DNA of 64,000 nt. Source: a virus. The notes under the pieces are model-generated. The model made no database searches and had not been told where the DNA came from. It worked only from the letters and a program-made list of their open reading frames with translations. The position numbers and the translations under genes were made by a program. This document shows positions 26,201 through 57,946 of this stretch, one piece after another. How positions within the stretch are numbered: the stretch's first letter is position 1; every line of letters starts with the position of its first letter. The stretch is from IMG/VR virus record IMGVR_UViG_3300043449_002510, positions 1-64,000 of that record; one strand, 5' to 3'.

Positions 26201-26301
26201 ATATAAAAAATACCGGTAATTATCCTCAACCAACAAATTATTTGATTACATTATTTTTGGGAGGTATTTACGACAGATTAAATGTAACAGATTATTCTTA
26301 A
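23251..26301 (+). CDS. Modular trimeric tail fibre
   Basis: 1016 residues. The N-terminal PELSGYI (16-22) matches the 9419 fibre. The body has seven or so copies of a VVYTTGxQTISGxKTF-type module, each opening a repeat domain, then (about residues 553-740) ten degenerate copies of an SNFIGxxAG repeat, and an LDVNGSGNF segment typical of phage fibres ahead of the tip. The last 140 residues form a separate beta domain. Such repeats form trimeric beta-rolls related in style to YadA-like heads. Likely a host-contacting side or tail fibre. Confidence 0.7.
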   Translation: MATYDSTVRLRQLNKPELSGYIVEVIGEIPNTGNLTGSFYPLNSNPSGFVTTSQTGDFITQIDLDSNYYNTLVYVGQNYYPSNNPSGYVANLSPIVYATGNQTISGVKNFNSRPLVNGVPVLIYGEGSGSGSLSGAVLLVGDQTISGVKTFANQVNVLGSFVVGNQIFEVDNVGNVSILDTVIDQNSFQFTNGSSFNILGISGTSIQLYESLITGFKNISATNIYKSGYPVIASNQLTGGTGIKIEQINNLIKISVTGIQGGSTVVSGIQNVVYTTGQQIISGAKTFVNQINIPSLDENSMLIAVPGAITIYDSTLSKNIFEFDEIGESFNLFGKDYTAIKLYDKIITGFNNVSSKDIEVTGNLYVSGNIIGGNVQNVVFTTGQQTISGYKTFNSGANFLTALYYNSNQVVTGSVVRPSDISDVVYLTGVQTITAQKNFSNGANFSGRLQLSGNSVITGAENLGNGEKIFTGINSKSEIKLRTLRAGSGIRITGNSNELFIDFTGSFSGEIVIPPVENVVYTTNVNQTISGEKTFVGKLITNQIYNNSSNYVYSNYIGTNAGIGDISATNYNSNYIGYYSANNNYGTNDYSNIIGNFAGANSYYLDNSNYIGNYAGYYTFECFYSNFIGSNAGANSVSCNFSNFIGNDAGVNANTCQLSNFIGYRAGYDTDLSDHSNFIGREAGVSADQSNDSNFIGTKAGYLGLNSSKSNFIGYSAGESALNAKNSIFIGTNAGYSNNLNNGENDFSILIGNYTSGKKNSIAIGQGAANSYEKQLNIGNVIYASGINTGINPSSSPALGRVGVLVESPLYTLDVNGSGNFRSGLFVSGISVLTGINTSSFITTSQTGNFVNLNTSQVISGIKTFLTGVVVSGVLSGKNIISENRGYGAGIYTFQKELSSNTSGDIFKIENLGIDYSSIVCDVMINSSWYVGKKYSVIYNPLNLDGPATSSLTLNNGPITSIGYTHDFDVKFQGLYAGNGFKMNIKNTGNYPQPTNYLITLFLGGIYDRLNVTDYS
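24910..25460 (+). repeat. Coding repeat, SNFIGxxAG type, about 10 copies
   Basis: Degenerate version of the 51-bp repeat in the 32655 fibre (SNYIGNYAG, SNFIGSNAG, SNFIGREAG, IFIGTNAG). Copies have diverged more here, suggesting an older expansion. Confidence 0.75.
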
Positions 26302-35600: not shown

Positions 35601-38600
35601 ATAGGCGTCAATGCGGGAATCAATGCAACAGGAGCAACTTATTCAAATTTCTTAGGAAATTATGCTGGTTATCAAGCGACCAACGCATTAAAATCAAACT
35701 TTTTAGGTGGATATGCTGGAAACGCTGCAATAAATTCTTCACAAAGTAATTTCTTGGGATATTATGCTGGATTTGGAGCAACAAATGCGAATGATTCAAA
35801 TTTTATTGGTCAACAAGCTGGTCAAAATGCAAATAACGCCAATAATTCTAACTTTTTAGGAAATTATGCTGGTGGTTTTGCAGTTAGTGCATCTAACTCA
35901 ACTTTTATAGGATCATTAGCTGGTTATGAAGCTGTCAGTGGAAACGATAGTAATTTTCAAGGAAATAGAGCTGGTTATCAAGCAAGCGGCGCGAATAATT
36001 CAAACTTTTTAGGTTATCAAGCTGGTTATCAAGCTTCATTAGCAAGGAATAGTAATTTTCAAGGTTATCAAGCTGGTTATCAAGCGACAAGTGGAAACGA
36101 TAGTAATTTCCAAGGATATCGCGCTGGTTATCAAGCTACTAGCGCTAATCGCTCTAACTTTTTAGGATATCAAGCTGGATATCAAGCAACAAATGCATTT
36201 GAATCAAACTTTTTTGGTTATTATGCTGGTTTATCAGCAACAACTGCTAATAATTCTAATTTCTTGGGAACTTTCGCTGGATGGAATGCAGTGAATGGTA
36301 ATAATTCTAACTTTTTTGGATATGCTGCCGGTACTGCTGCAACAAATGCATATCGTTCAAACTTTTTAGGATATTATGCTGGATATGCAGCAACAAATGC
36401 TTATAACTCAAATTTCTTAGGATTTTATGCTGGATATCAAGCTATAAATACTATTAATTCTAATTTCTTGGGATCAGAAGCTGGATATCAAGCAAGTGGT
36501 GCTGACAATAGTAATTTCCAGGGTTTCCAGGTGGGCTATCAGGCAACGAATGCTAATAGTTCTAGTTTTTTTGGTTATCGTGCCGGTTACCAAGCTGCGA
36601 GCGCTAATAACTCTAATTTCTTGGGACAAGAAGCAGGCTATCAAGCTTCTGGCGCTAATAGAAGCAATTTTCAAGGTTATCGTGCTGGTTACCAAGCGGC
36701 AAGCGCAAATCAATCAAATTTCTTGGGATATCAGGCTGGATATGTTGCGACAAATGCATATAGCTCTAACTTTTTTGGATTTCTTGCTGGTTATAATGCT
36801 ATAAATGCAAACAATTCTATTTTTATAGGAGATTATGCTGGTTATAGTTCTACAAATGCAAATAACTCTAATTTCTTAGGAAAACAAGCTGGAAGAGAAA
36901 CTAATGTAGTTTACTCAAACTTTTTAGGAGCTTCAGCTGGATATTTAGCTGCTAGCGCTAGTTATTCTAATTTCTTAGGAAATTACGCTGGATATTCTGG
37001 AGCACTCGCAAGTAATTCTAACTTCTTAGGAAATAACGCTGGGTATTTGGCAGTATATGCATATTACTCAAATTTCTTAGGCTATAGGGCTGGAAATCTT
37101 GCATCGAACGCTGATAATTCCAATTTCTTAGGACAAGATGCAGGATATCAAGCAACAAGCGGCAATAATAGTAATTTTCAAGGTTATCAAGCGGGATATC
37201 AAGCGACTGGCGCTAATAATTCAAATTTCTTAGGAAATCAAGCTGGATATCAAGCGACAAGTAGTAACAATTCAAACTTTTTAGGATATAGAGCGGGTTA
37301 TCAAGCTACAAGTGCTAGTAATTCTAATTTCGTTGGAAATACCGCAGGTCAATCTGCGCCAAATGCTAATCGTTCAAATTTCTTTGGACAACAAGCTGGA
37401 TATTTTGCAACAAGCGGTAATGATTCTAACTTTTTAGGATATCAAGCTGGAAGAGAAGCAGTAAGCGCTAATAACTCAAATTTCTTTGGGTATCAGGCCG
37501 GTTATCAAGCAACAAATGCTTTTAATTGTAATTTCTTGGGACAATATGCAGGGTATCAAGCAAGCGGCTTAAAACAATCAAACTTTTTAGGTAATGCTGC
37601 TGGTCAAAATGCAACTAATGCTGAATTTTCAAACTTTTTGGGTGCTAGTGCCGGTTTTAATTCTACAAATGCATATCATTCAAATTTCTTTGGAAGCAAT
37701 GCGGGTAGAGATGCAGCAACTGGACAATATTCAAACTTCTTTGGATTTAACGCTGGTAGAGAAGCGGTAAATGCTAATAATTCAAACTTTTTCGGATGGT
37801 TTGCGGGTTATCAAGCAAGTGGAGCTAGTAATTCTAATTTCTTAGGAAATTATGCTGGACAACAAGCCACAAATGCAAATAGATCAAATTTCTTTGGCTT
37901 AAATGCTGGTAATGGAGCGAGAAATGCAGCTGATTCAAATTTCTTTGGAAATTTAGCTGGCCAAAGTGCAATAGCTGCTGTATATTCTAACTTTTTAGGA
38001 TTTCAAGTTGGTTATCAAGCGAGTGGTGCAGAAATTTCTAATTTCTTAGGATATCAAGCAGGATATCAAGCAAGCGGCGCAAGTCATTCATTCTTTGCTG
38101 GTTACAGAGCTGGATATCAAGCTCCCAACGCCAATAACAGCATCTTCATTGGTCGAAGTGCTGGTGTTAATGATACAGTTAACAATGCAACTAATAAATC
38201 CTCCATTCTCATTGGTAACTATACTTCTACCAGCGGATATTCTGACAGTATTGCAATTGGTCAAGGTGTTGCAAACAGTGCAACACAACAGTTAAACATT
38301 GGAAATGTTTTATACGCAACAAATATAAACAATGCAACTACTCCAACTTCAACTCCTGTATTAGGAAGAGTTGGTGTGCGCGTAGCAAATCCTCAATATA
38401 CTCTTGACATAAATGGCTCTGGCAATTTCTCCAGCGGCATTTATGTAAGTGGTAATTCTACTTTCTACAACAATTTATCGATAAGCGGCCACTTATCTGC
38501 AACATCCAAAGCATTCAAAATAAATCATTTATCCAAGCCAGGAAAATATTTAATTCACGGCGCTTCTGAAGCTCCAGAGTGGACTGTTTTCGTCAGAGGG

Positions 38601-38825
38601 AAAACGGATGAACCAATAATCAGCTTACCAGATTACTGGTCATGGCTTGTTCACGAAAATTCTGTCACTTGCACAATAACGCCAATTGGCAAGCCAATGA
38701 ACTTATACATTGTAGAACAAACAAATGAAAAAATAGTAATTGGCGGCTTGGAAGCTGGCGGCAGCTACAATTATATTGTTTACGGCGAAAGAAAAGATAT
38801 TGACAAATTAATTCCTGAAATTTAA
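32655..38825 (+). CDS. Giant repeat tail fibre, 2056 aa
   Basis: Residues 1-1000 alternate VVYTTGNQxISGxKTF modules with two QNGVNxQTFRVYNTY domains shared with the 43664 fibre. Residues about 996-1836 are some 50 copies of a 17-residue repeat, consensus SNFLGYQAGYQATSANN. Then an IAIGQG, LDINGSGNF segment and a C-terminal domain (KPGKYLIHGASEAPEW, LPDYWSWLV, IVYGERKDID) of a type seen at the end of other phage fibres. The repeat should form a long trimeric beta-roll. Likely the main long fibre, with the C-terminal domain at its tip or as a trimer-maturation domain. Confidence 0.75.
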   Translation: MIGISSSNVGYSRSAVDAKIAAIPKVSGVVYTTGNQSISGSKTFLNGLNVSGTEVISSTGVSNVPLIVSGVSGQSAHLFRTINGANGRILTSSRSDGTLAANKLVLFRDSYGSDLDIITMSIKDNNQGLLIYTYGSYYCFSNQTPGKLVSVGGYIGGTGDEGYFALGGTTVTPTTNGDVFLRRDAANIFAQQNGVNSQTFRVYNTYTNTNNFERAKVGWNNNALEIGTEQGSTGGLPRDIKFLTSGVERGYLSADGSLFAVSGVLQAGVGNNNSAPQIRMGGVSSSQYAGFSRGSGGGGNGDILVWNGGVMKTVFSYQGVLISSDNALMFSDGTNPIGINSKNVTLRRDGNGILALRSHTFDTNNTPQQFRIYKDVSATTGQFGLAGWSGDNFVLGAQAFTGGVVWNTIITGNSINLLPKTGIVNVSGQILTNQRPLVNGTGVLLSGEAASLPTTIVYTTGSQTISGNKTFTADLKASSLIIEPGSFRIFDNVFSGDVLSLTEGSSFVLGAGASQIDIYNQTITGFGIYSDNIYQNGNLVITTADTGNFLTTSSNVVYTTGSQNITDLKTFESIRIGNDAGIYLTGGNSQIIFYDSYSPLEALRLEQELFDLKGPGNQIIRVYNGLIAGFSEIYSEYVYGDNLVYLTGNQTITGTKYFNNVYANNLYVNGTETIVNTTSLNVADNFIYLNATGGVRDAGIFINFASDSGSGAYIGWDIPSNSWRFGSGVSETDLGTLDYIASQSWVIGQSYVNTGQTGIFLTAASNVVYTTGNQNISGVKIFNDEVIATGSLTLSGNGALLKEAGTFGVRLVPAYGSSAWRVSLNNVPNNTYCYFGYHGGFRNGFWNNYLGTFGWTADGNAANTPDTLLSRDAAGIIAQQNGVNAQTFRVYNTYSTTGSFERAKLGWNSNVLEIGTEQGSTGGVARNLALVTSGQQRVTVDTIGRVGINTTSPSERLSVNGNILVTEYIINASNLSGLNTNSIGVNAGINATGATYSNFLGNYAGYQATNALKSNFLGGYAGNAAINSSQSNFLGYYAGFGATNANDSNFIGQQAGQNANNANNSNFLGNYAGGFAVSASNSTFIGSLAGYEAVSGNDSNFQGNRAGYQASGANNSNFLGYQAGYQASLARNSNFQGYQAGYQATSGNDSNFQGYRAGYQATSANRSNFLGYQAGYQATNAFESNFFGYYAGLSATTANNSNFLGTFAGWNAVNGNNSNFFGYAAGTAATNAYRSNFLGYYAGYAATNAYNSNFLGFYAGYQAINTINSNFLGSEAGYQASGADNSNFQGFQVGYQATNANSSSFFGYRAGYQAASANNSNFLGQEAGYQASGANRSNFQGYRAGYQAASANQSNFLGYQAGYVATNAYSSNFFGFLAGYNAINANNSIFIGDYAGYSSTNANNSNFLGKQAGRETNVVYSNFLGASAGYLAASASYSNFLGNYAGYSGALASNSNFLGNNAGYLAVYAYYSNFLGYRAGNLASNADNSNFLGQDAGYQATSGNNSNFQGYQAGYQATGANNSNFLGNQAGYQATSSNNSNFLGYRAGYQATSASNSNFVGNTAGQSAPNANRSNFFGQQAGYFATSGNDSNFLGYQAGREAVSANNSNFFGYQAGYQATNAFNCNFLGQYAGYQASGLKQSNFLGNAAGQNATNAEFSNFLGASAGFNSTNAYHSNFFGSNAGRDAATGQYSNFFGFNAGREAVNANNSNFFGWFAGYQASGASNSNFLGNYAGQQATNANRSNFFGLNAGNGARNAADSNFFGNLAGQSAIAAVYSNFLGFQVGYQASGAEISNFLGYQAGYQASGASHSFFAGYRAGYQAPNANNSIFIGRSAGVNDTVNNATNKSSILIGNYTSTSGYSDSIAIGQGVANSATQQLNIGNVLYATNINNATTPTSTPVLGRVGVRVANPQYTLDINGSGNFSSGIYVSGNSTFYNNLSISGHLSATSKAFKINHLSKPGKYLIHGASEAPEWTVFVRGKTDEPIISLPDYWSWLVHENSVTCTITPIGKPMNLYIVEQTNEKIVIGGLEAGGSYNYIVYGERKDIDKLIPEI
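35640..38160 (+). repeat. About 50 tandem 51-bp coding repeats
   Basis: Each unit encodes SN-F-[LFQVI]-G-x2-AG-Y-x-A-x5, 17 residues; one unit near 36900 has 16. Neighbouring units differ by many silent changes, so expansion is not recent, but near-identical GYQAGYQA stretches recur. Adjacent units could recombine and change fibre length. Confidence 0.9.
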
Positions 38826-41204: not shown

Positions 41205-43274
41205 ATGCCCAACATTTTAATTAATCCAAGCTCAGGAATACTGGAATTCAATACAGGAATAGCCGGTGGATCATCTTTTTCTTCACTTTCTGGCGCGTCG
41301 AGGTTTACTTTTAATAGCGGCGAGATTAATCTTGCCAGTTACGCAACTGGCGTAAAAGACCGTTTTACTATTGATGGTTCGGCTGGCCGCTTATTTTCTG
41401 TCTCTGATGCATTAACGGGCACAATTTTTTCTGTTAACGATATAGCGGGCCTTCCGCTTATTGAAGTTGTTTCAACCAGCGGCGACACCATTACAATGGG
41501 GCCTTATAATACCAGCACTTTTGTAATAAAAGATACCAAAGTTGGCATTGGAACTGGAAATCCATCTTATATTTTAGATGTAAATGGATCAGCAAAAATC
41601 TTATCAATTTATGCAGATGGAGATAATGGAACTAGAATGGGAGCTATTGCAGAAGGTTTTGTAACAAATAGAACTTTATCTGTTGGAACTGTTACCTCTG
41701 GTCCTAATTATGCAAATTGTCAAGCTGTTATTATAGGTACAACTTCGACAAGGCATGCTTTAGTTGTTCAAGGATTAGATTCAACTTATACAGCAAATCT
41801 TTTGAGATTTAGAGTCGGAACAAATGTTGTTGGATTTATTAATTCTGGAGCTAACTTTTTTGCAATGGGTGGTACAGGAAATACTTCTGCCGCCATTAAA
41901 AGTTCTGGAATCTCTATTCAGGCAAGATTAGCTGATGATAGTGATTTTGCAGATTTTCAAGCAAAAAATATAACAGCAAATTCAAGCGGTATATTCGGAA
42001 GTGGATTTTTTAGAAGTGGCTTGTCTGCCAGTGGAACTTCAACATTTTATAATCAATTAAATGTTTCTGGAATAAAGTATGATGTATTGACGGGAACACA
42101 AATCCCACCAGCTTATCAAGAAGGTTTCTCTTGGTATGATGATGATAATAAAGCTTTATCTTATTATAATGATGTAAATGGAGTTCCAGTTCATATGGGA
42201 CAACAGCAGCTTGTAAGAGGAACTAATAATCTTCCATTTACTTTAACAAAAGGACAAGTAGTTTATATAACAGGCGCGGGTGGAGGAGACAAGTTCCCAG
42301 GTTTTAGTTTGGCTTTAGCTACTGGCGACAATACCTCCGCAAGAACTATTGGAGTAATTGCAAACGACATTACTTCAAATGGAAAAGGTTATGCAATTTC
42401 ATTCGGCAAATTGGAAGGAATAGATACGAGCGCATATAACGTTGGAGATACTCTTTATCTTTCTTGGACATCTAGCGGAAGTTTTACTGGAGCTAAACCT
42501 CAAGCACCATATCACATGGTCAGAGTCGGCACTGTTTTAAGACAAGGCAACTCTTCCAATGGAGTTATCTTTGTTACCATTCAAAACGGTTATGAATTAG
42601 AAGAATTACATGATGTAAGAATTACCAATCCGCAAAATAATCAAGCAATATTATGGAATTCAACAAGCGGAGTTTGGGCAAATGAACAAATAAGTACTGG
42701 AGACATAAATGGAATTAATAATTTGGTTACCGTTAGTGGAAATCAAACAATTTATGGAAATAAAACATTTGCCGCTGACTTAAATGCAAGCTCTCTTATT
42801 ATAGAACCAGGAAATTTAAGAATTTTTGATAGCGTACTTTCTGGTGATGTTTTTAATTTAACCGAAGGTTCAAATTGCATTGTAAATGGAATTGGTTGTC
42901 AAATTGATTTGTATAGTCAAGTAATTAGCGGATTTGAAATTTATTCTCAAAACATCTACCAAAATGGAAGCTTGGTTATTACTTCAAACGATACTGGTGA
43001 CTTTTTATCAGTATATTCTAATGTAGTTTATACTACTGGAAACCAAACAATCAATGGAATTAAAAATTTTACAAATTCTGTCGGAATTAATAATATATCT
43101 CCATCATATACATTTGACGTAAATGGAAGCGGCAATTTCACTAGTGGCATTTTGACAAGTGGAAATTTTGAATCTTCAACTGCTTCCAATGGAATAATAT
43201 TAAAGTCCCCAAATGGTTCCAGATACAAAATAACAGTAAATAACGATGGATCTTTAAGTACAACATTAATATAA
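41205..43274 (+). CDS. Modular tail fibre, 689 aa
   Basis: Begins MPNILINPSSGILEFNTG. Has a KVGIGTGNPSYILDVNGSA segment near residue 115, a central domain (GTQIPPAYQEGFSWYDDDN, then LPFTLTKGQVVYITGAGG, a chitin-binding-like or phage-fibre domain seen in many tail proteins), and a C-terminal half nearly copying part of the 32655 fibre: ASSLIIEPGNLRIFDSV, YQNGSLVITSNDTGDFL, NVVYTTGNQTINGIKNF. Ends in a second LDVNGSGNF-type block (FDVNGSGNF). Another fibre of the same modular family; receptor unknown. Confidence 0.7.
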   Translation: MPNILINPSSGILEFNTGIAGGSSFSSLSGASRFTFNSGEINLASYATGVKDRFTIDGSAGRLFSVSDALTGTIFSVNDIAGLPLIEVVSTSGDTITMGPYNTSTFVIKDTKVGIGTGNPSYILDVNGSAKILSIYADGDNGTRMGAIAEGFVTNRTLSVGTVTSGPNYANCQAVIIGTTSTRHALVVQGLDSTYTANLLRFRVGTNVVGFINSGANFFAMGGTGNTSAAIKSSGISIQARLADDSDFADFQAKNITANSSGIFGSGFFRSGLSASGTSTFYNQLNVSGIKYDVLTGTQIPPAYQEGFSWYDDDNKALSYYNDVNGVPVHMGQQQLVRGTNNLPFTLTKGQVVYITGAGGGDKFPGFSLALATGDNTSARTIGVIANDITSNGKGYAISFGKLEGIDTSAYNVGDTLYLSWTSSGSFTGAKPQAPYHMVRVGTVLRQGNSSNGVIFVTIQNGYELEELHDVRITNPQNNQAILWNSTSGVWANEQISTGDINGINNLVTVSGNQTIYGNKTFAADLNASSLIIEPGNLRIFDSVLSGDVFNLTEGSNCIVNGIGCQIDLYSQVISGFEIYSQNIYQNGSLVITSNDTGDFLSVYSNVVYTTGNQTINGIKNFTNSVGINNISPSYTFDVNGSGNFTSGILTSGNFESSTASNGIILKSPNGSRYKITVNNDGSLSTTLI

Positions 43275-43663: not shown

Positions 43664-45505
43664 ATGCCGCGCCACATAATTGATTCAGGAATTCAGTTCA
43701 TTAATGCCATAAATACATCAGGGGTTCCCTTGACTATTTCTGGCGTTAGTGGACAGAGTTCCAATTTGCTTAGAACAATAAACGGCGCAGATGGATCAGT
43801 TTTAACTTCTTTAAGAAGCAATGGATATGTTGGCTCAAAAGGTTTAAAAATAACAAATGATTCAAATGCTGATATAATAACTCTTTCATTATATAATAAT
43901 TATGGATTAATGGTTGATTGTTACGGTGGTCAAACATTTTTTAGCAATTCAAATGGAACAATAGTAACATTAGGTGGTTATATAGGTGGAACAACTAATG
44001 GATACTTTGCATTAGGAGCAACTACCTTAAATAATAGTGTTAATGCTGGTCAAGACACGATTTTTTATCGTGACGCCGCTGGAATATTCGCCCAAAGAAA
44101 TGGTGTAAATTCTCAAACTTTTAGAGTTTATAATACTTATTCAACAACTGGCAATTTTGAAAGAGGCAAAATAGGTTGGAACAACAACGCTTTTGAAATT
44201 GGAACCGAACAAGGTACAACTGGTGGAGTTGCAAGAGATTTGCGCTTTTTAACTAGCGGCTCTGGAAGAATGACGATTACTAGTGGCGGAAATGTAGGAA
44301 TAGGTACAATTAATCCTACAGCTAATTTAGATGTAGATGGTAGTGTAAAAATTGCTAGCGCCAGAAATAATCAATTTCCTCTTTCTATTTACGGAGGTAA
44401 TAGTTCCGCTCAAGCGTGTCATATAATATTGTACAACAATGTTCCTGTTGGAGTTATTAAAGCAGGTGGCAATGGTACAGTTGGGCAAGGATTCGCTAAT
44501 TCAAGTTATAATTACCAACTTTTTGTTAGATGGTCAGATGGTAATGTTGGAATAAATACAACATCACCAAATTATACTTTAGATGTCAATGGCTCTGGAA
44601 TTTTCCAAAGTGGTTTATCAGTTAGCGGTCAAATCATAACAAATCAACGTCCATTAATAAATGGCACCCCAGTTCTTCTCAGCGGAGAGGGCGGCGGAGC
44701 TACTCCAGCAAATTTAGTTTATACAACTGGTACCCAAACAATAGCTGGAGAAAAAACTTTCAGTAATAAAGCCAATTTTTATTCTGGTTTTTCTGTTGGT
44801 AATAATTATTTAAACGCTGACTTTAATAGTTTCGAAATTTTCGATGATCCAAATTTCCTTACTGTAATGAAGTATGCTGAAAATACTGAATTTTATTTTG
44901 AAGGGCCATCTGGAGCAAAAGTTGATGTATGGAATAGCAATGTTTCTAATTTTGATAAAATTTCTTCAAATTTAATTTCTGGCACTAACCTCAGTTTAGA
45001 AAGTGGAATTAAATTTAACGGAGGCATTTCTAATAAAAGCTTCGAGATCTATAAAGATGACAAAACTTACAATTTTAGCATGGGGCCTACTGGAACTTGG
45101 GGCGCTTTTGGTTCAACTTTAATTTCTTTAACTAGTGGTGGCCCAAACATTAGTAATAATTTTACTCCATCTTTTAAATTAATAGATCAATCAAATTCTC
45201 AATTTTTTGAAATTGGTGGATATTCTGATGATGAACAATATGGTTCATTTAGCACTTTTAGAATGGGGAGCGAGGGGCTTGGATATTGGAGTGCAGGTGG
45301 TGGAATTTTTGCTGTAAGAGGAACAAATGTAGGTATAGGTACTGCTTATCCTGGTCATAAATTAGATGTAGATGGTAATATTAATGCCACTAGTTTTTCT
45401 TCAAGTGGAAACGCAGGAATGACAACTTCCGTCTCTGTTATAGATAATAGCAACAATGTAATTACATTAAACTTTGAGAACGGATTACTTATATCAATAA
45501 CTTAA
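43664..45505 (+). CDS. Modular tail fibre, 613 aa
   Basis: Begins MPRHIIDSGIQFINAINTSG. Contains VPLTISGVSGQSSNLLRTING, an RNGVNSQTFRVYNTYSTTG domain and a NQRPLINGTPVLLSGEG block, all close to blocks in the 32655 fibre; then NLVYTTGTQTIAGEKTF. LDVNGSG and LDVDGNI segments flank the end, and the C-terminus is a short NNVITLNFENGLLISIT strand. Fibre subunit of the same family; exchange of modules with 32655 looks likely. Confidence 0.7.
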   Translation: MPRHIIDSGIQFINAINTSGVPLTISGVSGQSSNLLRTINGADGSVLTSLRSNGYVGSKGLKITNDSNADIITLSLYNNYGLMVDCYGGQTFFSNSNGTIVTLGGYIGGTTNGYFALGATTLNNSVNAGQDTIFYRDAAGIFAQRNGVNSQTFRVYNTYSTTGNFERGKIGWNNNAFEIGTEQGTTGGVARDLRFLTSGSGRMTITSGGNVGIGTINPTANLDVDGSVKIASARNNQFPLSIYGGNSSAQACHIILYNNVPVGVIKAGGNGTVGQGFANSSYNYQLFVRWSDGNVGINTTSPNYTLDVNGSGIFQSGLSVSGQIITNQRPLINGTPVLLSGEGGGATPANLVYTTGTQTIAGEKTFSNKANFYSGFSVGNNYLNADFNSFEIFDDPNFLTVMKYAENTEFYFEGPSGAKVDVWNSNVSNFDKISSNLISGTNLSLESGIKFNGGISNKSFEIYKDDKTYNFSMGPTGTWGAFGSTLISLTSGGPNISNNFTPSFKLIDQSNSQFFEIGGYSDDEQYGSFSTFRMGSEGLGYWSAGGGIFAVRGTNVGIGTAYPGHKLDVDGNINATSFSSSGNAGMTTSVSVIDNSNNVITLNFENGLLISIT

Positions 45506-49085: not shown

Positions 49086-49364
49086 ATGGTGGAAAACAAT
49101 CTCATCTCTCTTCAGATAGAGAAGGAAATAACTTCTCTCTTCAAATTTTATTTAGAAGAACTTGAGCAACTCAAGTTAGATCCAGAAAAACACGAAATAC
49201 TCCGCAAAAAAATATTAGACCATGGTAATGATACTATAAGAAATACTTTAATTTTCTTGGGATATTTTGATTTTACAATAAATACCAAAAAAGTAGAAGA
49301 AGCTTCAAAAAATAGAATTGTTTATAAAAAAACCATTATTTCTAATCCGATTTTTATAAAATAA
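49086..49364 (+). CDS. Small helical tail-region protein, 92 aa
   Basis: Begins MVENNLISLQIEKEITSLF; helical, with LEELEQLKLDPEKHEIL and a DTIRNTLIFLGYFDF segment. No family recognised. It opens the unit that carries two chaperone-like genes and the tape measure and is separated from the next gene by four bases. Could be a small assembly factor. The GGA-containing AAAAAGGATT lies just upstream of the ATG. Confidence 0.5.
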   Translation: MVENNLISLQIEKEITSLFKFYLEELEQLKLDPEKHEILRKKILDHGNDTIRNTLIFLGYFDFTINTKKVEEASKNRIVYKKTIISNPIFIK

Positions 49365-49368
49365 ATAT

Positions 49369-50199
49369 ATGGAAAAAGAAAAGCAAAAATACATCTACGA
49401 AACAACTGTAAAAAAAGAAGTTTTTGAAAAGGTAACTGAAGAACGCGAAGAAAATGGACAAAAAATTCAAGTTACAAAAGAAGTAAAAAAAGAAAAGCCA
49501 GCAAAAATAGCTATTTTAAAACCAGATCGTAAAAAATATAAAGAAGCTGAAATTTTTTACGCAAAAACTCTTTCTAATTATTTAAAAGAAGGCTTGCTTC
49601 CTCATTCATTAGTTTCTAAAAGATATATAAACGATGGTGGTCCATTAACTGAAAGTGAAAAGAAAACTCTTAATGCAATGCGTGATAGATATAACGAATT
49701 GCAAGAAGAATATTTTAAAATGGAGAATCCATTAACTGATGAACAAAACAAAAGACGTGGAGAAATTATTCTCGAAATGAGCGAAATTAATCGTTTAGTA
49801 AAAGAAATTAAAAATTCTTATTCTGATATTTTTGAAAATACTGCAGAAGCTAAAGCTAAAAATGACACCATTGAATGGTGGGTTTTAAATTTGAGCTTAA
49901 TTAATGAAGATAATTCTGAGTACAAGTTATTTTATGGTGATGGAGATTTAGATTCTAAAATTAATTCTTTGGAAAATATTGAATCAAAAGATGACCCTTT
50001 TTATAACGAAGTAATAAAAAAATTATCTTATTTTATTAGCTTTTGGTATGCTTCTGGTGCTAATGCTAGTTTAGAAGATTTTAAATCAGCAGAAGAACAC
50101 TATAATTTAAATATTTCAACCTACTTAAAAGAAGAAATTACCCCCTCTGAAATAGATAAAAAAGTAGAAGAATTAAAAAAGGAAGATAAAAATTCTTAA
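49369..50199 (+). CDS. Putative tail assembly chaperone, copy 1
   Basis: 276 residues, charged and helical. Begins MEKEKQKYIYETTVKKEVFEK, with a segment EGLLPHSLVSKRYIN followed by GPLTESEKKTLNAMRDRY that is repeated, diverged, in the next gene (EGVPHESEVLENSLK, GEWTKEKENKILELKF). Genes between tail tube and tape measure are normally assembly chaperones that coat the tape measure. The residue pattern and location support this, with no conserved family motif seen. A late A-AAA-AAG run is not a working frameshift site here. Confidence 0.5.
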   Translation: MEKEKQKYIYETTVKKEVFEKVTEEREENGQKIQVTKEVKKEKPAKIAILKPDRKKYKEAEIFYAKTLSNYLKEGLLPHSLVSKRYINDGGPLTESEKKTLNAMRDRYNELQEEYFKMENPLTDEQNKRRGEIILEMSEINRLVKEIKNSYSDIFENTAEAKAKNDTIEWWVLNLSLINEDNSEYKLFYGDGDLDSKINSLENIESKDDPFYNEVIKKLSYFISFWYASGANASLEDFKSAEEHYNLNISTYLKEEITPSEIDKKVEELKKEDKNS

Positions 50200-50208
50200 A
50201 TTTGAAAA

Positions 50209-51069
50209 GTGGACAATAAAGAAGAATTAAATATTTCAGAAGTAGACGAATTAAAACTTTTTTATTATGAAATTTTGAATGGTTCGTCTTTTATTTCAGA
50301 CAATTCTTTTTTTATAAAACACTTCTCAGAAAGAGAAAGTTATTTAATTCAAAAAAAGAAAATTGAGCTTTTCTATTACTACGCAAAAGAGGGGGTTCCT
50401 CATGAATCTGAAGTTTTAGAAAATTCTTTAAAAAATGGGGAATGGACAAAAGAAAAAGAAAACAAAATCCTTGAATTAAAATTTGCTATTTCTGATAACG
50501 AAAGAAATATTCAAAATATAATAATCGAACAGCGACCTTTGATTCAGGCCGCTATAGATGAGAATAAAAAAGAATTATCTGAATTAATTATTGAAAGAAA
50601 ACAAGTTTTAGGTAAAAGTGTTGAAGATTTAGTTGATGATGATATAAATGACTATATTTCTTTTATATCCTTTTTTAAAGATGAAAAATGTAAAATCTCA
50701 GCATTTGAATCTTTCGAAGAATTTGAAAAAATTGATTTTTATCAAATTTTAAAATTAAACAAAATCCTTTCTTCTCATTATGAGAAAATATCAGAATTAG
50801 TTATTAAGAAAATAGCTGCAATGCCATTTTTTTTAAATAAATTTTCTTATGCAAAAGAAGATATAAGTTCTTTTTTGGGAGTTCCATTAAATGATTTAAC
50901 TCATAATCAAAATCATTTATTTTCTATTGGAATAAGAAATTTAAATGTTTTATCCAATACAAACGGGAATCCTCCAGATTTATCATTGGGAGCAAAACCA
51001 ATAAACTTAGTAAATTGGTACGATATTCAAAATTCTATACTTATTTCAAAAAGAAATCAATCAAAATAA
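50209..51069 (+). CDS. Putative tail assembly chaperone, copy 2, GTG start
   Basis: 286 residues from GTG. It aligns with copy 1 in the middle (EGVPHESEVLENS..NGEWTKEKENKILEL) and is also charged and helical (FYEILNGSSFI, KKIAAMPFFLNKFSY). It is in the same frame as copy 1, past two stops, so it is a separate gene and not a frameshift product. Tandem duplication of a chaperone is likely. No Shine-Dalgarno site before the GTG; translational coupling to the stop 9 bases upstream is probable. Confidence 0.5.
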   Translation: MDNKEELNISEVDELKLFYYEILNGSSFISDNSFFIKHFSERESYLIQKKKIELFYYYAKEGVPHESEVLENSLKNGEWTKEKENKILELKFAISDNERNIQNIIIEQRPLIQAAIDENKKELSELIIERKQVLGKSVEDLVDDDINDYISFISFFKDEKCKISAFESFEEFEKIDFYQILKLNKILSSHYEKISELVIKKIAAMPFFLNKFSYAKEDISSFLGVPLNDLTHNQNHLFSIGIRNLNVLSNTNGNPPDLSLGAKPINLVNWYDIQNSILISKRNQSK

Positions 51070-51112: not shown

Positions 51113-54100
51113 ATGGCAATGCAATTAAATGTTACGGTTAATCCCGTATTTAATAATTCTCAATTTACGGCAGCAGGAGTTCAGGCAGGATCTAATTTTG
51201 CTAATGGATTAAATTCTGCTATTTCTAAATCTCAACCATTAGGCAGAATAACTGGTCAAGTCTCTGAATTTGAAAAATCAATGGAAGCTGCAAACGCTCG
51301 CGTTTTAGCTTTCGGTGCTTCTGCTGGATCTATTTACTTGATAAAAAGCGCATTTGATAAATTGTTTTTCTCTACAGTTCAAGTTGAAAAAGCTTTAGCT
51401 GACATTAATGCGATTCTTGGAGTTGGAAGTTCTCTTTTAAAATCTTTTTCTAACGAAATATTCAAAGCCGCCTCTTTTACTGGTCAAACATTCGAAACGG
51501 CGGCAAAAGTAGCTCTTGAATTTGCTCGCCAAGGTGCTGGAGCGGAAGAAGCTGCAAAAAGGATGAAGGCTGCCCTAGAATTAATGAGAATTTCAGGTTT
51601 AAACGCAGATGAAGCCGTCAATTCTATAACTTCTTCCTTAAATGCTTTTTCAAAAGAAGCTTTAACAGCAGAAGATGTTGTAAATAGATTAACCGCTGTT
51701 GATACTAAATTCGCAGTTAGTTCAAAAGACTTGGCTAATGCACTTCAGCGTGTTGGGGCCGTTGCTAGTGACGCCGGAATTCAATTTAATGAACTCTTAG
51801 GTTTAGTTACCGCCGCTCAAACTATAACTGCTCGCGGTGGAGCAGTTATTGGTAACGCATTTAAATCTATTTTTACTAGATTAGCTAGACCTCAAGTTTT
51901 AGATGACTTGGAGGCCGTGGGAGTTACAACAAGAAATGCTTCTGGACAAATTCTTCCAATGATAAGCGTTTTAAAAAATCTTGCTAATCAATACAACTCT
52001 CTTGGTTCAGCACAGAAATCTTTTATATCTGAATCTGTTGGCGGAGTTTATCAAGTCAATATTTTAAAAGCGGCCTTGGCTGATTTAGGTGATGGCATTT
52101 CTATTTTTGATAAAGCAACAATTGCGGCAGGTCAATCTACTGGATTAATTCAAAAAAGAATGGAAGAGCTTAATGAAACAATTTCTTCCAAACTTAATAC
52201 TTCTGCTGTGGAATTGACAAAATTATTCGCTGATCTTGGACAAAAAGCTTTTGGTTCAAGCGCAAAAGGAGCAATAGACGCCTTTAATAAAAATATATCA
52301 TTTTTAAGTAATGCATTAAGTGACGTAGAGCCAGATGATAATGTTGGAGAACAAATAGGTAAAACCATTGCTCAAGGAATTGTTAAAGGAATAGGGGGAA
52401 TTATATCTGGCCCAGGAGTTCAAATCGCAGCAGTTTTATTAACAAAAATGTTTTCCAACATCGGGAAGTTTGCCATTGAGGCTTCTCGTGATTTTATGGG
52501 AGCAAATGAGGCTTTAAAAAAGCAGGAAAGTATTGTTAGTAGCATTCAAAACTTCTTAAGTAAAAATCCAACTATCCTCCAAGCAATAAAAGCTGGACAA
52601 TTAAATGTAAATCAAGCTCATTTAATTTATTTACAGCAGTTGCAACAAGAAAATCAACTTAGGGCTCAGAATGCTGCTATAGCTACAACAATTGCGACTA
52701 ATGCTGCACCTTATATAACTACTTCTAAAAAACAAACTCCTGGAGCTGGTTATATTCCTAATTTTGCCCAAGATGAAAGTAGTACTGAAAAAAGAATTGC
52801 TCTTAATCATGGATATGCTCCAGGCCCCACTTATAAAAAAATAATTCATGATGGAAAAGGTGGAGCTTTTTTAACTACAGTAAATGGAGCAGAAAATATA
52901 TATAACTTTACTAATAAAAAGGGTTATAAAGCTACAATGGTTGTTCCACCTAATGGATTTGGAGAAAACACAATGATGGCTGGCTCTGGTTTTATTCCAA
53001 ATTTTGCTAAAATTTCTCGAACTGGAACACAAATATCAAATAATAAAAGTTTTTCAACATTAATTAGTGGAAAACATGCAAATGGAATAGATACATTTAG
53101 TGCAAGCTATAATTTATTTACTTTAAATGAAACTAATAAACAGATTGAGAGAGAAGCGAAGGCAAAAAATATAAGTAAAGGAAGATTAACTGAATTAAAG
53201 GCAATTGAATATTTAAAGAAAAAATCTCCAAACAAAAAAGCCAATGACCTTAATGAAATTAATAGTACATATCCTTTTGATTTAGAACAGGGTGGTAATT
53301 TTTATGAAGTAAGGGGAAGAAGAAATGTTGGAGCGACCGCTCTCGTAGCAAAAGCTGCAAGATATAAAATAAATAAAAATAATAAATTTAATAATGTTAC
53401 TTTTGATTCTCCTCCCAAAAAACAATCAGAAGAATTAGGAAATTTTAATTTAATAACTTTAAAAAATTCTATATTAGCTAGCGAATTCTTAAATAAAGGA
53501 AGTGGATTTATTCCAAATTTCGCAGAGTCTTCTTTGCCGCCAATTCCATTTCAAATAGTTGGATTAAATAAAAAATTAAAAAATCTCAAAGAAAAAGCAA
53601 AACAAGATCCAAAACTTTGGGATCAATTTAGAATGGCGTATCAAGACCATGCCATAAAAATTTTTGAAAAAAAATTAACACAATTATATCCGGGAACAGT
53701 AATAAAAAGTTCTACTCCAACTGCAAACATTAGTGGAGCTGGACTTGGATTCACTGGTAAAAAAAGTTTTCCTGGATTCGATGGAGTTACAGAAATACAA
53801 ACAGTTAATCCAGATTTATTACAAATATTAGGATGGCCACCTAACAAAAATTCAGGAAAAATTCTTATTTCAGCAAAATCTGGATCTGAAAAAGGAGCAG
53901 ATGTAAGAGAACAATTCGGAAAAGGAGTAAGCGCTCTTTCTTCATCTGGATATTTAAAACCGGAAGAACCTTTTTATTCACTTGTAGCTGGACTTGTTCC
54001 TGGATCTGGTTTAAAACCAAATAATCCACTTCATCCTTTGGGACACGCCTATGCGTCTGGTTTTATTCCAAATTTTGTTTCTGAAAATGCAATTAATGCA

Positions 54101-57100
54101 CTGAGAGAAATTGCAAGTGGAAAGCGTGGTGGTACGAAAGCAGAAATTGCGAACGCACAAGAAAAAATAAATAAAATTTTAGGCTCAGATAAATTAAGTA
54201 AATCTTTAATATTAACGAACAGATCTTTATTTGGCAAAAAATTAGACTCTGATGCTTTGGCATATATTTCTAAAACTTCTCCAGAACAATTAACCAAAGA
54301 CTTAAAAAGTGGTTATTTAGAGGGATCAATTGGCCACGATCTTTCTAATTTTAGAAATTCAATATTTAGCGCTGGTTCTGGTTTTCTTCCAAATTTTGCT
54401 TATGGTTATTATTCTAAATATAGTTCTTCATATGGCAAACAAAGTGGATATAAACCTAGTAAAAGTTTACAAAAAGAAAAGGAAGAAAAGAGAAGACAAA
54501 AAGAATTATATGGAAATTATTATAAAAGCCCAGAAATAACAAGTAATCCTTGGTCAAAAAATTTCGGTAAAGATTTTTCTGCTTCAGGATTTCTACCAAA
54601 CTTTGGTTACTTAAAAAAAGTAATGGGATTAGAAAAAACTCTTAGCGGCAAGGAGCCAATTTTAGATACCACTACTGGTCCATTTCCTTTTATTAGGAAT
54701 ACAGACCAACCGAATTTTGCAGCAGCGGTCGCTGATCATGGAGGATTAAAAAATGCCTTAAAAGATTCTTCTAAAAATCAAAAAGCCGCTGGAATAATGG
54801 CTGGAGGTGGTTTTATTCCAAATTTTGGAGTAGAAGAAAGTTTAATGCTTGGCGTTGTTCAAGCTTTTTCTGGACAATTATCTTCAAAATTAAAACCTCT
54901 TTCTTTTGGATATGATAAACAAATTGAAGAAAGTCAAAAAGTAGTTTCTGCAGCTCAACCATTAGCCGACGCTTTTGACGAATTAAAAAATAAATTGGCT
55001 TCCGTAAGCAAACAATATAAAGAAGAAGCTAAAAAACGACAAACGCCAAAGAGAAGAGCCGAGCAACAAGCAAGAATCTCAGAAATGAAATCTGTCTCTG
55101 CAGAAATGCGTGTAAAACGAACTGAATATAAAAAAGAAACGGGATTAGATATTAACAGACAAAAAAGAGAAGATCAAGCTAAAAAATTTGTTGAATATGA
55201 ACAAAAATTAACAGGAACAAGAGAAAAAATACAGGGTATCAGTGGTATCGCTTCTATTGTTTCTCCAATGGCTGGAGGTATGGCGGCCTCTGCATTAAAA
55301 ACACTTGGAGTCTCACCAGATACCACAAAGGGAGTAGAAACTTTATTTGAAGGAGCAGGTATGGCTGGACAAGCATTAATGGCCATGCCTAATCCAATCG
55401 GAATAGCAGTTGCTGGACTTTTAGGCGTCACCAAAATAAACACAGCCTTAAATGAATTTACTTCTGGTCTTGAAAAGGCAAAAGCGTCTTATGAAAGAGA
55501 AATGCAATCAATAGAAAAAACAACTAATGCATTAAATTCAATTCAACAAAATTATCAAAATTTAGATAATATTTTAAAATCTGGAACCGCTTCTCTTTCT
55601 CAATTTTTATCTGCAAATAGAAAATTTTCAGAATCAATGGTTAAACTAGCTTCTGCTAATCCACAATTAGCAGAAAAAATGAGAAAAGCCACTACAGAAG
55701 AAGAAAGAATGGCAATTCAGAGTGAATTTTCAGAGGCTTCTGAATTAAAAAAGAGACAAAAAGAATTCGACGTAATGTACGCCGAGAGGAAAAAAGAAAC
55801 AAATGTTTTAGGGTCAAATGTTCTTGCGATGGGTCGTGAAAGAGGGAGATTTTCTGTTGGAATGTTTGCTGGAAAAGAAGAGGAAAAAAAAGTAGAAAGC
55901 GAATTAAAAGAAGCCGCAACATTAATTCAATCTGAAGTTATAGATGCTCTTTCAAAGAGTGAGAAAAAAGAAGAAAGAGATTTAGCGGCAGAAATAACCA
56001 GAGGTTTATCAAAAGGATACATTACTGAAGAAAACAAAAAAGAATTATTAAGTTATGCTGAATATGGAAGAGAAGGAAAACAGTATTCTGAAACTATTGG
56101 CAAAATGGATATTTATGCAGAAATAAAGGCTTCTTTACAAGAGTTATCTAAAATTCTCGATACTTTTGGAATGAGTGCAAGCAGTGTTGAACAATACGAA
56201 AATCTTCTAAAAGAACAAAACGAAATAACTAGTAAACAAAATGCAATAAGAAGAAAACATAACCAAGATTTACAAAACTCACTAAATAGAGGTATTACGC
56301 TTGGGATGATTGAAAATAAAAGACGCCAACAATCATTAGAACAAAAAGAAAGAGATACGGGCATGAAATATGCTTTTGAAGAATCTAATATAAATTTAGA
56401 GTCTTTGGTTTCTTCCGAAGCGGATATACGTTATAGACGCGGAGTTTCGAGACAAAATCAAATAATTGAAGAAGGACAATTAAAACAAGAAAAAACAAAG
56501 AGTGTCTTTGAAGAAAATCGTCTTGGACAATTAATGGAAGTAGTTAAACAACAAATGGAGGCAAAAAATGCTTCTTCATTAAAAAGTGGTAAAGATGTTT
56601 ATAGTATAGAGCCATCTAAAGAATCCCAATCCCTTGCTAATTTTTTAGAATCAAAATCTAAAGAATTTTCTGGAGGAAATGTTGGAAAATTAACTGAATT
56701 ATTAAAATTGACTCCAGAAAAATTTACTGAAGCTTTTCTTGGTCCAAAAGAGAAAGCGCAAAAAGATTTTGGAATTTCGAGTTCAACTTATGACACATTA
56801 TTTACAGATATACAAACCCTTACTCTTTCGGGAAAAAATACAGAAGAAACTAATAATTATTTAAATGATTTATTAAGAACCGCGCAAGAAACCAAGAATA
56901 ATGCTGAAAAAAATGCTTTAGAAACTCAAACTGCAATTAAAGAAATTAGTTTCAAAGAACTAAGTCAATCATTAGGCGGTTTAAGTTTGCTGGAAAGAGG
57001 TGGAGTTAGAAAAGAGCGTAGAGAAATAAGAAGAGCTGAATTTCTTGCTGAACGCGGAGCAACTCCAGAAGCTAGAGCTAGAGGAGCTGCTGCTTTATTA

Positions 57101-57946
57101 AAACGTATACCAGAAACCATGAGAGATGTTAGAAATCCAATGGTTGCTGATTTACTTAAAACAGTTGAATTAGGATTTCGATCTGGCAATGAAAAAGTTT
57201 TATCTGGAACTAAATTAGGTGCTTCTGGTTTAATGGGAAGTCCTGAACAAATGATTCTAGCTCAAACATATGGAAATATAAAAACATCTGGATTAGGAGA
57301 AGACTTCTTTAAGAAAGCGGGATTAACTATTGAAAAAGGAGAGATTGGTCGAGGTCAATTTCAAGAATTAAACACTGAGCCTTTACAACAATCCATAACA
57401 AAAATATCTTCATCTTTATATATTTGGGAAACAAATCTTTTAAACTCAATCAAATCAGTAAATTTTAATTCAGTAAAAACACAACTTTCTGATTTGGAAG
57501 AAGCTTCAAAAGGCGTGACTGACGAATTGAGAAATTTAAAAGAAAGCCTTACTCCGAAAACTCCAGTGGAATCAAAAGGTTCACCAAAAGCTATTCCAAC
57601 TAGTTTCGCTAATTTACAAGCGGTAGTAAGTAAAAACGCACCCTCTGAAACTTTAAATGTTACTCAATCAACTCCAAAAGTTAAAAAAACACCAGCAGGA
57701 AAAGAAGAGGAGTCTAAAAAGACAGAAAATAAATCAGAACAAGGAACGTCTGCATTAAATGAGGAATTAATTGAAAATATAAGATCATTAACTTCTGTCA
57801 TGAATGAAGCTGCAAATGCTTTTAAAGAATCTAAATCAACAATGAGCGCTGATGAACTTAAACGGGCTTTCGGTCCAACTAATGAAATTTTAGGCTCAAT
57901 TCTTGGCGCAACTCAGTCAGATAAAAATTTACCAGTTTCAGTATAA
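51113..57946 (+). CDS. Tail tape measure protein with FIPNF-bounded inserted domains
   Basis: 2277 residues. Residues 60-330 match the TP901-type tape-measure core (QVEKALADINAIL; GQTFETAAKVALEFARQG; ITARGGAVIGNAFKSIF). From 544 to 1239 the motif [AG]-[SAG]-G-[FY]-[IL]-P-N-F occurs at 544, 624, 796, 981, 1088, 1157 and 1231. Between copies are unlike domains, including a nuclease-like one (GRLTE694..PFD723..E732VR734). From 1240 there are coiled coils, hydrophobic stretches near 1380-1440, and charged helices to the C-terminus. It sets tail length and is ejected on infection. 2277 residues suggest a tail of roughly 340 nm at about 0.15 nm per residue. Confidence 0.85.
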   Translation: MAMQLNVTVNPVFNNSQFTAAGVQAGSNFANGLNSAISKSQPLGRITGQVSEFEKSMEAANARVLAFGASAGSIYLIKSAFDKLFFSTVQVEKALADINAILGVGSSLLKSFSNEIFKAASFTGQTFETAAKVALEFARQGAGAEEAAKRMKAALELMRISGLNADEAVNSITSSLNAFSKEALTAEDVVNRLTAVDTKFAVSSKDLANALQRVGAVASDAGIQFNELLGLVTAAQTITARGGAVIGNAFKSIFTRLARPQVLDDLEAVGVTTRNASGQILPMISVLKNLANQYNSLGSAQKSFISESVGGVYQVNILKAALADLGDGISIFDKATIAAGQSTGLIQKRMEELNETISSKLNTSAVELTKLFADLGQKAFGSSAKGAIDAFNKNISFLSNALSDVEPDDNVGEQIGKTIAQGIVKGIGGIISGPGVQIAAVLLTKMFSNIGKFAIEASRDFMGANEALKKQESIVSSIQNFLSKNPTILQAIKAGQLNVNQAHLIYLQQLQQENQLRAQNAAIATTIATNAAPYITTSKKQTPGAGYIPNFAQDESSTEKRIALNHGYAPGPTYKKIIHDGKGGAFLTTVNGAENIYNFTNKKGYKATMVVPPNGFGENTMMAGSGFIPNFAKISRTGTQISNNKSFSTLISGKHANGIDTFSASYNLFTLNETNKQIEREAKAKNISKGRLTELKAIEYLKKKSPNKKANDLNEINSTYPFDLEQGGNFYEVRGRRNVGATALVAKAARYKINKNNKFNNVTFDSPPKKQSEELGNFNLITLKNSILASEFLNKGSGFIPNFAESSLPPIPFQIVGLNKKLKNLKEKAKQDPKLWDQFRMAYQDHAIKIFEKKLTQLYPGTVIKSSTPTANISGAGLGFTGKKSFPGFDGVTEIQTVNPDLLQILGWPPNKNSGKILISAKSGSEKGADVREQFGKGVSALSSSGYLKPEEPFYSLVAGLVPGSGLKPNNPLHPLGHAYASGFIPNFVSENAINALREIASGKRGGTKAEIANAQEKINKILGSDKLSKSLILTNRSLFGKKLDSDALAYISKTSPEQLTKDLKSGYLEGSIGHDLSNFRNSIFSAGSGFLPNFAYGYYSKYSSSYGKQSGYKPSKSLQKEKEEKRRQKELYGNYYKSPEITSNPWSKNFGKDFSASGFLPNFGYLKKVMGLEKTLSGKEPILDTTTGPFPFIRNTDQPNFAAAVADHGGLKNALKDSSKNQKAAGIMAGGGFIPNFGVEESLMLGVVQAFSGQLSSKLKPLSFGYDKQIEESQKVVSAAQPLADAFDELKNKLASVSKQYKEEAKKRQTPKRRAEQQARISEMKSVSAEMRVKRTEYKKETGLDINRQKREDQAKKFVEYEQKLTGTREKIQGISGIASIVSPMAGGMAASALKTLGVSPDTTKGVETLFEGAGMAGQALMAMPNPIGIAVAGLLGVTKINTALNEFTSGLEKAKASYEREMQSIEKTTNALNSIQQNYQNLDNILKSGTASLSQFLSANRKFSESMVKLASANPQLAEKMRKATTEEERMAIQSEFSEASELKKRQKEFDVMYAERKKETNVLGSNVLAMGRERGRFSVGMFAGKEEEKKVESELKEAATLIQSEVIDALSKSEKKEERDLAAEITRGLSKGYITEENKKELLSYAEYGREGKQYSETIGKMDIYAEIKASLQELSKILDTFGMSASSVEQYENLLKEQNEITSKQNAIRRKHNQDLQNSLNRGITLGMIENKRRQQSLEQKERDTGMKYAFEESNINLESLVSSEADIRYRRGVSRQNQIIEEGQLKQEKTKSVFEENRLGQLMEVVKQQMEAKNASSLKSGKDVYSIEPSKESQSLANFLESKSKEFSGGNVGKLTELLKLTPEKFTEAFLGPKEKAQKDFGISSSTYDTLFTDIQTLTLSGKNTEETNNYLNDLLRTAQETKNNAEKNALETQTAIKEISFKELSQSLGGLSLLERGGVRKERREIRRAEFLAERGATPEARARGAAALLKRIPETMRDVRNPMVADLLKTVELGFRSGNEKVLSGTKLGASGLMGSPEQMILAQTYGNIKTSGLGEDFFKKAGLTIEKGEIGRGQFQELNTEPLQQSITKISSSLYIWETNLLNSIKSVNFNSVKTQLSDLEEASKGVTDELRNLKESLTPKTPVESKGSPKAIPTSFANLQAVVSKNAPSETLNVTQSTPKVKKTPAGKEEESKKTENKSEQGTSALNEELIENIRSLTSVMNEAANAFKESKSTMSADELKRAFGPTNEILGSILGATQSDKNLPVSV

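What the first reader, a model, noticed from the sequence alone, without database searches (positions are those of the whole stretch)
52742..54829. Tape measure carries seven FIPNF motifs that bound unrelated inserted domains
Seen directly: the motif [AG]-[SAG]-G-[FY]-[IL]-P-N-F occurs seven times (residues 544, 624, 796, 981, 1088, 1157, 1231) at irregular spacing of 69-185 residues. The sequences between the motifs share no obvious repeat, so the motif itself looks like the unit of modularity. The intervening pieces look like small globular domains rather than the coiled coil expected of a ruler. Known: tape measures are ejected through the tail into the host. Inference: the FIPNF motifs are junctions or docking peptides that let cargo domains be swapped into the tape measure, and those domains act in the host on entry. 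This is the strongest candidate for an undescribed system in the window.
Basis: partly seen in the sequence, partly recalled or inferred. Interest (0 to 1): 0.85.

Follow-up and report, generated by a model that had tools for sequence, protein, structure and literature searches.

The report
Tape measure with swappable domain cassettes
The protein that sets tail length in a family of uncultured phages also carries a row of exchangeable protein domains, each fenced off by the same short GFIPNFA peptide, so phages with almost identical tape measures carry different domains (one a confirmed nuclease family) that are probably delivered into the bacterium.

Summary
In detail: the 2277-aa tape measure (51113-57946, +) has seven G-[FY]-[IL]-P-N-F motifs at the stated places. 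Shuffles give none, and the rest of the 124-kb genome has none.

A scan of uncultured virus contigs gave 80 relatives. The 74 long tape measures hold 301 motifs (consensus A-[AS]-x-G-[FY]-I-P-N-F-A) delimiting 225 segments in 74 sequence clusters. Homology between relatives breaks at motifs: 48% of breakpoints lie within 5 residues of one (random 6%). Proteins with 99-100% identical N-termini carry different middle segments, and one gained a single 241-residue cassette. Codons at the motif vary like background, so the peptide, not the DNA, is conserved. A motif scan hit only this tape-measure family.

Cargo includes a Pfam-confirmed staphylococcal-nuclease domain, a PcfJ domain, Walker-A domains and many segments with an E-D-(D/E)xK nuclease-like signature. 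Structure search did not confirm the nuclease fold. The window's own cargo remains mostly unidentified.

Best reading: a cassette tape measure delivering interchangeable enzymes at entry. Modularity is shown; delivery and motif function are inferred.

The parts
51113..57946 (+). tape measure protein, 2277 aa
   Evidence: Pfam PhageMin_Tail 5.5e-25; twelve PHROG tape-measure families
51113..52741 (+). constant N-terminal part (residues 1-543), with PhageMin_Tail at 51479-52024
   Evidence: 53-58% identical in L002/L003; conserved in 150 contigs
52742..52765 (+). motif 1, GAGYIPNF
52766..52978 (+). segment 1, conserved entry segment of the array (cluster C17; same slot as C2, C4, C10)
   Evidence: phmmer 1e-15 to 1e-9 to L147, L026, L133, L097, L093
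52982..53005 (+). motif 2, GSGFIPNF; homology to L003 ends here
53006..53494 (+). segment 2, 163 aa, cargo; weak match to cluster C47 with E, D and EVR in register (possible PD-(D/E)XK relative)
   Evidence: hhalign probability 59-80%; no database hit
53498..53521 (+). motif 3, GSGFIPNF
53522..54049 (+). segment 3, 176 aa, cargo, orphan
   Evidence: no relatives found
54053..54076 (+). motif 4, ASGFIPNF
54077..54370 (+). segment 4, 98 aa, helical cassette (cluster C9) also found in L065/L068 in slot 3 and related to C48 of L043
   Evidence: phmmer 1e-9; hhalign C9-C48 100%
54374..54397 (+). motif 5, GSGFLPNF
54398..54577 (+). segment 5, 60 aa, Tyr/Lys/Ser-rich, orphan
54581..54604 (+). motif 6, ASGFLPNF
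54605..54799 (+). segment 6, 65 aa, conserved exit segment of the array (cluster C3)
   Evidence: 53-66% identical in at least 14 relatives; pLDDT 85-90
54803..54826 (+). motif 7, GGGFIPNF; homology to L003 resumes here
54827..57943 (+). C-terminal rod part after the last motif, proposed ruler
   Evidence: 26% identical to L003 over 1235-2036; rod length independent of cargo in relatives
50209..51069 (+). conserved upstream gene (286 aa), candidate tape-measure chaperone or motif partner
   Evidence: family present directly upstream in 68 of 69 loci; function not tested
49369..50199 (+). second conserved upstream gene (276 aa), candidate partner
   Evidence: 64 of 69 loci; no PHROG

Best explanation
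This is a cassette tape measure. A constant N-terminal part and a C-terminal rod flank a variable region built of protein cassettes, each bounded by the conserved peptide A-[AS]-x-G-[FY]-I-P-N-F-A. Cassettes are gained, lost, replaced and reordered as units, so phages with the same N-terminal part carry different cargo (shown). The peptide is kept by selection on the protein, so a partner reads it or it is a structural hinge (inferred from conservation). The cargo is partly enzyme-like, with nuclease-type signatures commonest, and is probably carried in the tail in an unfolded or narrow form, ejected with the tape measure, and folds in the host envelope or cytoplasm, where it helps takeover or counters defence (inferred). 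The rod after the last motif, not the cargo, probably sets tail length (inferred).
For: 301 motifs in 74 relatives delimit 225 segments in 74 clusters. Clean gain of one 241-aa cassette between L008 and L009; replacement between motifs in L055/L066, L050/L064/L082 and L054/L061. Breakpoints within 5 residues of a motif 48% against 6% random. N-termini 99-100% identical with different cargo. Same cassette in different slots (C7, C8, C9, C28). Motif constraint is on protein, not DNA, and the motif is confined to this family. Cargo: SNase 1.7e-9 over the cut-off with active-site residues, PcfJ 2.9e-7, E-D-[DE]xK invariant in 58 sequences, signature in 13 of 57 clusters against 0.36 in shuffles. 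Compact domain model at pLDDT 90.8. Rod lengths fall in two classes whatever the cargo.
Against: No structural match for the commonest cargo, so nuclease assignment rests on residue pattern. Window segments 2 and 3 are orphans and fold poorly. No evidence here that cargo reaches the cytoplasm. In some pairs the C-terminal part is also mosaic (41-47% identity with 95% N-termini), so exchange is not limited to cassettes. About a quarter of breakpoints are more than 15 residues from a motif, and pairs are not independent.
Confidence: 0.62

Rival explanations
1. The motif is a processing site: the tape measure is a polyprotein cut by a phage or host protease at each GFIPNFA, releasing cargo peptides before or during ejection. 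Cassette exchange would be the same; only the role of the motif differs.
For: Motif on both sides of every cassette, small residues and an invariant Gly before the aromatic, one motif flavour (F or Y) per phage as expected if each phage has one reader.
Against: The motif occurs in no other protein of the genome or of the scanned contigs, unlike general maturation-protease sites; no protease was identified near the gene (not searched exhaustively).
Confidence: 0.2
2. The variable region diversifies to escape host defences or superinfection-exclusion proteins that recognise tape measures (as SNIPE does, PMC13190303); the inserted domains are decoys without enzymatic action.
For: Tape measures are targeted by SNIPE; cargo differs between phages with otherwise identical N-termini.
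Against: Replacement is by whole unrelated domains with conserved catalytic-type residues (SNase, E-D-[DE]xK), not by point diversification; cassettes recur in distant relatives.
Confidence: 0.12
3. Ordinary mosaicism: the inserts are structural or envelope-penetrating domains of the tape measure, swapped by the usual illegitimate recombination of phage genomes with the motif as a simple flexible linker.
For: Many cargo clusters have no identified function; tape measures with wall-hydrolase domains are known; the C-terminal part is mosaic too.
Against: No wall hydrolase was recognised in 86 cargo segments; a simple linker would not keep G, P, N and F nearly invariant in 301 copies with free codons.
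Confidence: 0.2
4. The motif is a DNA recombination hot spot, with the peptide a by-product.
For: Four of seven copies in the window share the same 18 bases GGTTTTATTCCAAATTTT.
Against: Synonymous codon use at every motif position matches background across 69 phages while the amino acids are fixed.
Confidence: 0.03

Closest known systems
Polyvalent proteins (Iyer et al. 2017, PMC5512222)
   Same: Multi-domain virion-associated proteins with unrelated enzymatic domains, proposed to be injected with the DNA.
   Different: Those are mostly head, MuF or portal-linked or conjugative proteins; the text does not mention tape measures. Here the carrier is the tape measure itself and a fixed peptide delimits each domain.
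Polymorphic toxins (Zhang et al. 2012; from own knowledge)
   Same: Constant delivery part, hypervariable toxin-like part, shuffled between relatives.
   Different: Cargo is internal and multiple, in a phage structural protein; immunity genes were not looked for.
Tape-measure-like effectors of contractile injection systems, Sle1 and Tme (PMC13277306, PMC11126660)
   Same: Tape-measure-derived protein that carries exchangeable functional domains and is ejected.
   Different: Single C-terminal domain, bacterial injection system without genome, no repeated motif.
Tape measures with wall-hydrolase domains (TM4, SPbeta YomI and others)
   Same: Tape measure with an added enzymatic domain; N-terminal homology at about 25%.
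   Different: Single fixed domain thought to act on the wall (own knowledge); no GFIPNFA array was detected in isolated phages.

Membership tests
Phage tail tape measure protein | PhageMin_Tail domain in a very long ORF in a tail gene block | tested here: met
   88.9 bits, cut-off 33.2; twelve PHROG tape-measure families
Phage tail tape measure protein | Length sets tail length | not testable with these tools
   Needs electron microscopy; indirect hint from rod-length classes
Polyvalent proteins | Two or more domains with disparate biochemical activity in one polypeptide | tested here: inconclusive
   SNase in L074 and PcfJ in L024 confirmed, but two confirmed activities in one protein were not shown; window cargo unidentified
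Polyvalent proteins | Packaged in the virion and injected | not testable with these tools
   Follows from tape-measure biology only
Polymorphic toxin systems | Constant delivery part with hypervariable exchanged toxin part | tested here: met
   N-terminal identity 99-100% with different cargo, as exchange; toxicity itself not shown
Polymorphic toxin systems | Adjacent immunity gene for each toxin | not tested
   Neighbours that vary with cargo were not analysed; conserved neighbours only
PD-(D/E)XK nucleases (cargo cluster C1 superfamily) | E, D and (D/E)xK residues conserved in register | tested here: met
   E104 near invariant, D125 and K148 invariant in 58 sequences
PD-(D/E)XK nucleases (cargo cluster C1 superfamily) | Restriction-endonuclease-like fold | tested here: not met
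   Confident model (pLDDT 90.8) without a PDB or BFVD match; so it is not filed as a member
PD-(D/E)XK nucleases (window segment 2) | E, D and (D/E)xK residues | tested here: inconclusive
   E and D in register with C47/C25, but EVR in place of EVK; weak profile match
Staphylococcal nuclease (cargo of L074, cluster C15) | Pfam SNase over the cut-off, with active-site D, R and E residues | tested here: met
   38.5 bits, profile 3-106 of 107; DGDT, R28, D33, E36, R75 invariant in three members

The most novel reading that the evidence does not exclude
A widespread, undescribed delivery architecture in which the tail ruler is a multi-slot carrier: one universal adapter peptide lets a phage mount any of dozens of effector domains in the tape measure and inject several different enzymes per infection, exchanged between phages much as polymorphic toxins are between bacteria.
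Probability: 0.5. Interest if true: 0.9.

Novelty: new variant of a known kind. Interest (0 to 1): 0.77.

Why it matters
Tape measures are usually treated as rulers and membrane channels. Here a tape-measure family of uncultured phages, matched in 50,697 phage records only over its N-terminal part at about 25-30% identity, shows polymorphic-toxin-like cassette exchange inside the ruler. It makes testable which part of a tape measure is the ruler, how folded domains pass a tail tube, and what enzymes a phage injects first. A short peptide that lets foreign domains be tolerated inside a tail protein would also interest those who study contractile injection systems.

Tried and rejected
Chance occurrence of the motif: rejected by shuffles and by the control pattern. 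DNA recombination site: rejected by codon use. General virion cleavage motif: no motif elsewhere in the genome, and none in a non-family protein among 112 motif ORFs. Close relatives of window segments 2 and 3: none in viral contigs or phages, and none of segment 2 in plasmids; a profile scan with A3 returned only one of its own members. Pfam, PHROGs and PDB searches with window cargo segments: nothing convincing. AlphaFold of window residues 540-1245: poor and its fold search uninformative. Fold search of the commonest cargo in PDB and BFVD: no match. All-against-all hhalign of clusters timed out and was replaced by chosen queries. Kinase, ADP-ribosyltransferase and HAD readings of cassettes in L049, L051, L083 and L082 were made by eye and got no database support, so they are not claimed. 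Host assignment by genome bins: four multi-motif contigs lie in bins of unrelated phyla, not usable. No large-terminase match with PF17289. Literature searches for the motif and for modular tape measures found no description.
Full report
Observation. The ORF 51113-57946 is a 2277-aa tape measure (PhageMin_Tail E 5.5e-25 and twelve PHROG tape-measure families). It holds seven G-[FY]-[IL]-P-N-F motifs at the stated residues, none expected in shuffles, none elsewhere in the window or in the rest of the 124-kb record. The six inter-motif segments are unrelated to each other at the BLAST level.

Relatives. A first scan of viral contigs with the N-terminal part found L002/L003 (58% identity) and L004-L007 (36%). 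A profile from these (A1) found 150 relatives, of which 80 were kept (L008-L087). Isolated phages match only about the first 400 residues at about 25% identity, and the motif region and the conserved end segments have no match there. The family is therefore known here only from metagenomes.

The motif. In 74 tape measures longer than 1500 aa there are 301 motifs with consensus A-[AS]-x-G-[FY]-I-P-N-F-A. The search expression itself fixes G (or A) and P-N-F, but I (79%), F/Y (88%) and the following A (68%) were not fixed. In 84,980 prokaryote genomes the four ORFs with two or more motifs are the same family, while ten ORFs with a single copy look like chance. Codon entropy at motif positions equals that of the same amino acids elsewhere in these proteins, so the constraint is on the peptide. 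F or Y at the first aromatic position is shared within a protein more than chance (0.74 against 0.51, maximum of 500 permutations 0.59), which suggests one reader per phage, or homogenisation by exchange; the permutation does not remove shared ancestry.

Cassettes. The 225 segments form 74 clusters, 40 of them singletons. The first segment (motif 1 to 2) and the last one are conserved across much of the family; the middle ones vary in number and kind. Exchange is seen directly. L009 and L008 are 93.5% and 88% identical on the two sides of a clean 241-aa cassette present only in L009. L055 and L066 are 97% identical to residue 1228, then carry unrelated cassettes (161 and 95 aa), and are homologous again from the next motif. 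L050, L064 and L082 carry cassette C14, C29 and C14+C29 next to the same end segment. L054, L058, L060 and L062 have N-termini 99-100% identical and cargo sets that share only some members. C7, C8, C9 and C28 occur at different ordinal positions. Over 115 pairs with N-terminal identity of 70% or more, 48% of 243 homology breakpoints lie within 5 residues of a motif centre (random 6%) and 65% within 10 (12%); median 6 against 44 residues. Pairs overlap, so this is an effect size, not a P value. Some cassettes are more alike than their carriers (65% against 43%), as expected of transfer. The window protein obeys the same rule: against L003 it is homologous over 4-634 and from 1235 on, i.e. up to motif 2 and from motif 7, and its segment 4 recurs in L065/L068 in another slot.

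What the cargo is. Solid: a full SNase domain fills a cassette of L074 (38.5 bits, cut-off 21) with conserved active-site residues in three relatives; a PcfJ domain lies in L024 (30.8 bits, cut-off 25). P-loop cassettes (C7) have a clear Walker A sequence but score below Pfam cut-offs. Signature level: the commonest cargo superfamily (A5, 58 sequences down to 13% identity) keeps E104, D125 and [DE]xK148, the residue pattern of PD-(D/E)XK nucleases, and a similar pattern is found in 13 of 57 cluster representatives against 0.36 in shuffles (the expression was written after reading the sequences, so this is not an independent test). The AlphaFold model of this superfamily is confident and compact (pLDDT 90.8), so this cargo is a globular domain, but Foldseek finds no relative in PDB or BFVD, so the fold remains unassigned and I do not file it as PD-(D/E)XK. 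Window segment 2 shows a weak profile match to cluster C47 with E, D and EV[KR] in register; segment 3 is an orphan.

Mechanism. Shown: modular exchange of protein cassettes at a conserved peptide inside a tape measure. Inferred: because tape measures leave the tail during infection, the cassettes are delivered; because some are enzyme families, they act on host or competitor molecules; because the peptide is conserved as protein, a partner reads it or it is a required hinge. Two gene families directly upstream of the tape measure are near universal (68 and 64 of 69 loci) and are candidates for that partner. In the L043-L068 group the part after the last motif has one of two lengths (about 1190-1240 or 1430-1450 aa) whatever the cargo, which suggests that the rod and not the cargo is the ruler. 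The C-terminal part is itself divergent between some phages with near-identical N-termini, so the cassettes are not the only mosaic part.

Relation to known systems. Polyvalent proteins (PMC5512222) are the nearest concept; that paper's text does not mention tape measures. The tape-measure-like effectors Sle1 and Tme of contractile injection systems (PMC13277306, PMC11126660) show that tape-measure scaffolds can carry exchangeable domains, which supports the plausibility of the reading. SNIPE (PMC13190303) shows that hosts target tape measures, the basis of the escape rival. I found no description of the GFIPNFA motif, in a library that lacks most subscription papers.

Verdict. The finding is real, and the modularity claim survives a direct test in relatives. 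Docking by the motif and action of the cargo in the host remain inference.

Noticed in passing
49086-51069: Three genes directly upstream of the tape measure belong to families conserved next to it in 45, 64 and 68 of 69 loci, without a PHROG match for the one tested; candidates for tape-measure chaperones.
   Followed up: partly
L217:15707-16474 (about 118.7-119.5 kb of the record, outside the window): Gene with a pseudopilin-type N-terminus [26 protein letters not shown], which from own knowledge is typical of the Planctomycetes-Verrucomicrobia group; a weak host hint.
   Followed up: no
23251-26301, 41205-43274, 43664-45505: Three large proteins with BppL_N matches (lower baseplate, receptor-binding type), suggesting several receptor-binding proteins.
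   Followed up: no
32655-38825: A 2056-aa protein with known family matches mainly at its last 200 residues (PHROG 17490, function unknown).
   Followed up: no
A5 (L030:10310-10879 and 57 relatives): Confident compact model (pLDDT 90.8) with invariant E, D and K and no structural neighbour in PDB or BFVD: possibly a new fold or a strongly altered nuclease fold.
   Followed up: partly
L220, L227, L229, L241: Contigs with this tape-measure family sit in genome bins labelled Paceibacterota, uncultured bacterium, Verrucomicrobiales and Flavobacteriaceae; probably binned phage contigs, so not host evidence.
   Followed up: partly
L097:2633-2908, L093:1890-2150: Some relatives (L097) carry PNY in place of PNF (GYIPNYA, GFVPNYV), so the motif counts given are lower bounds.
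   Followed up: no
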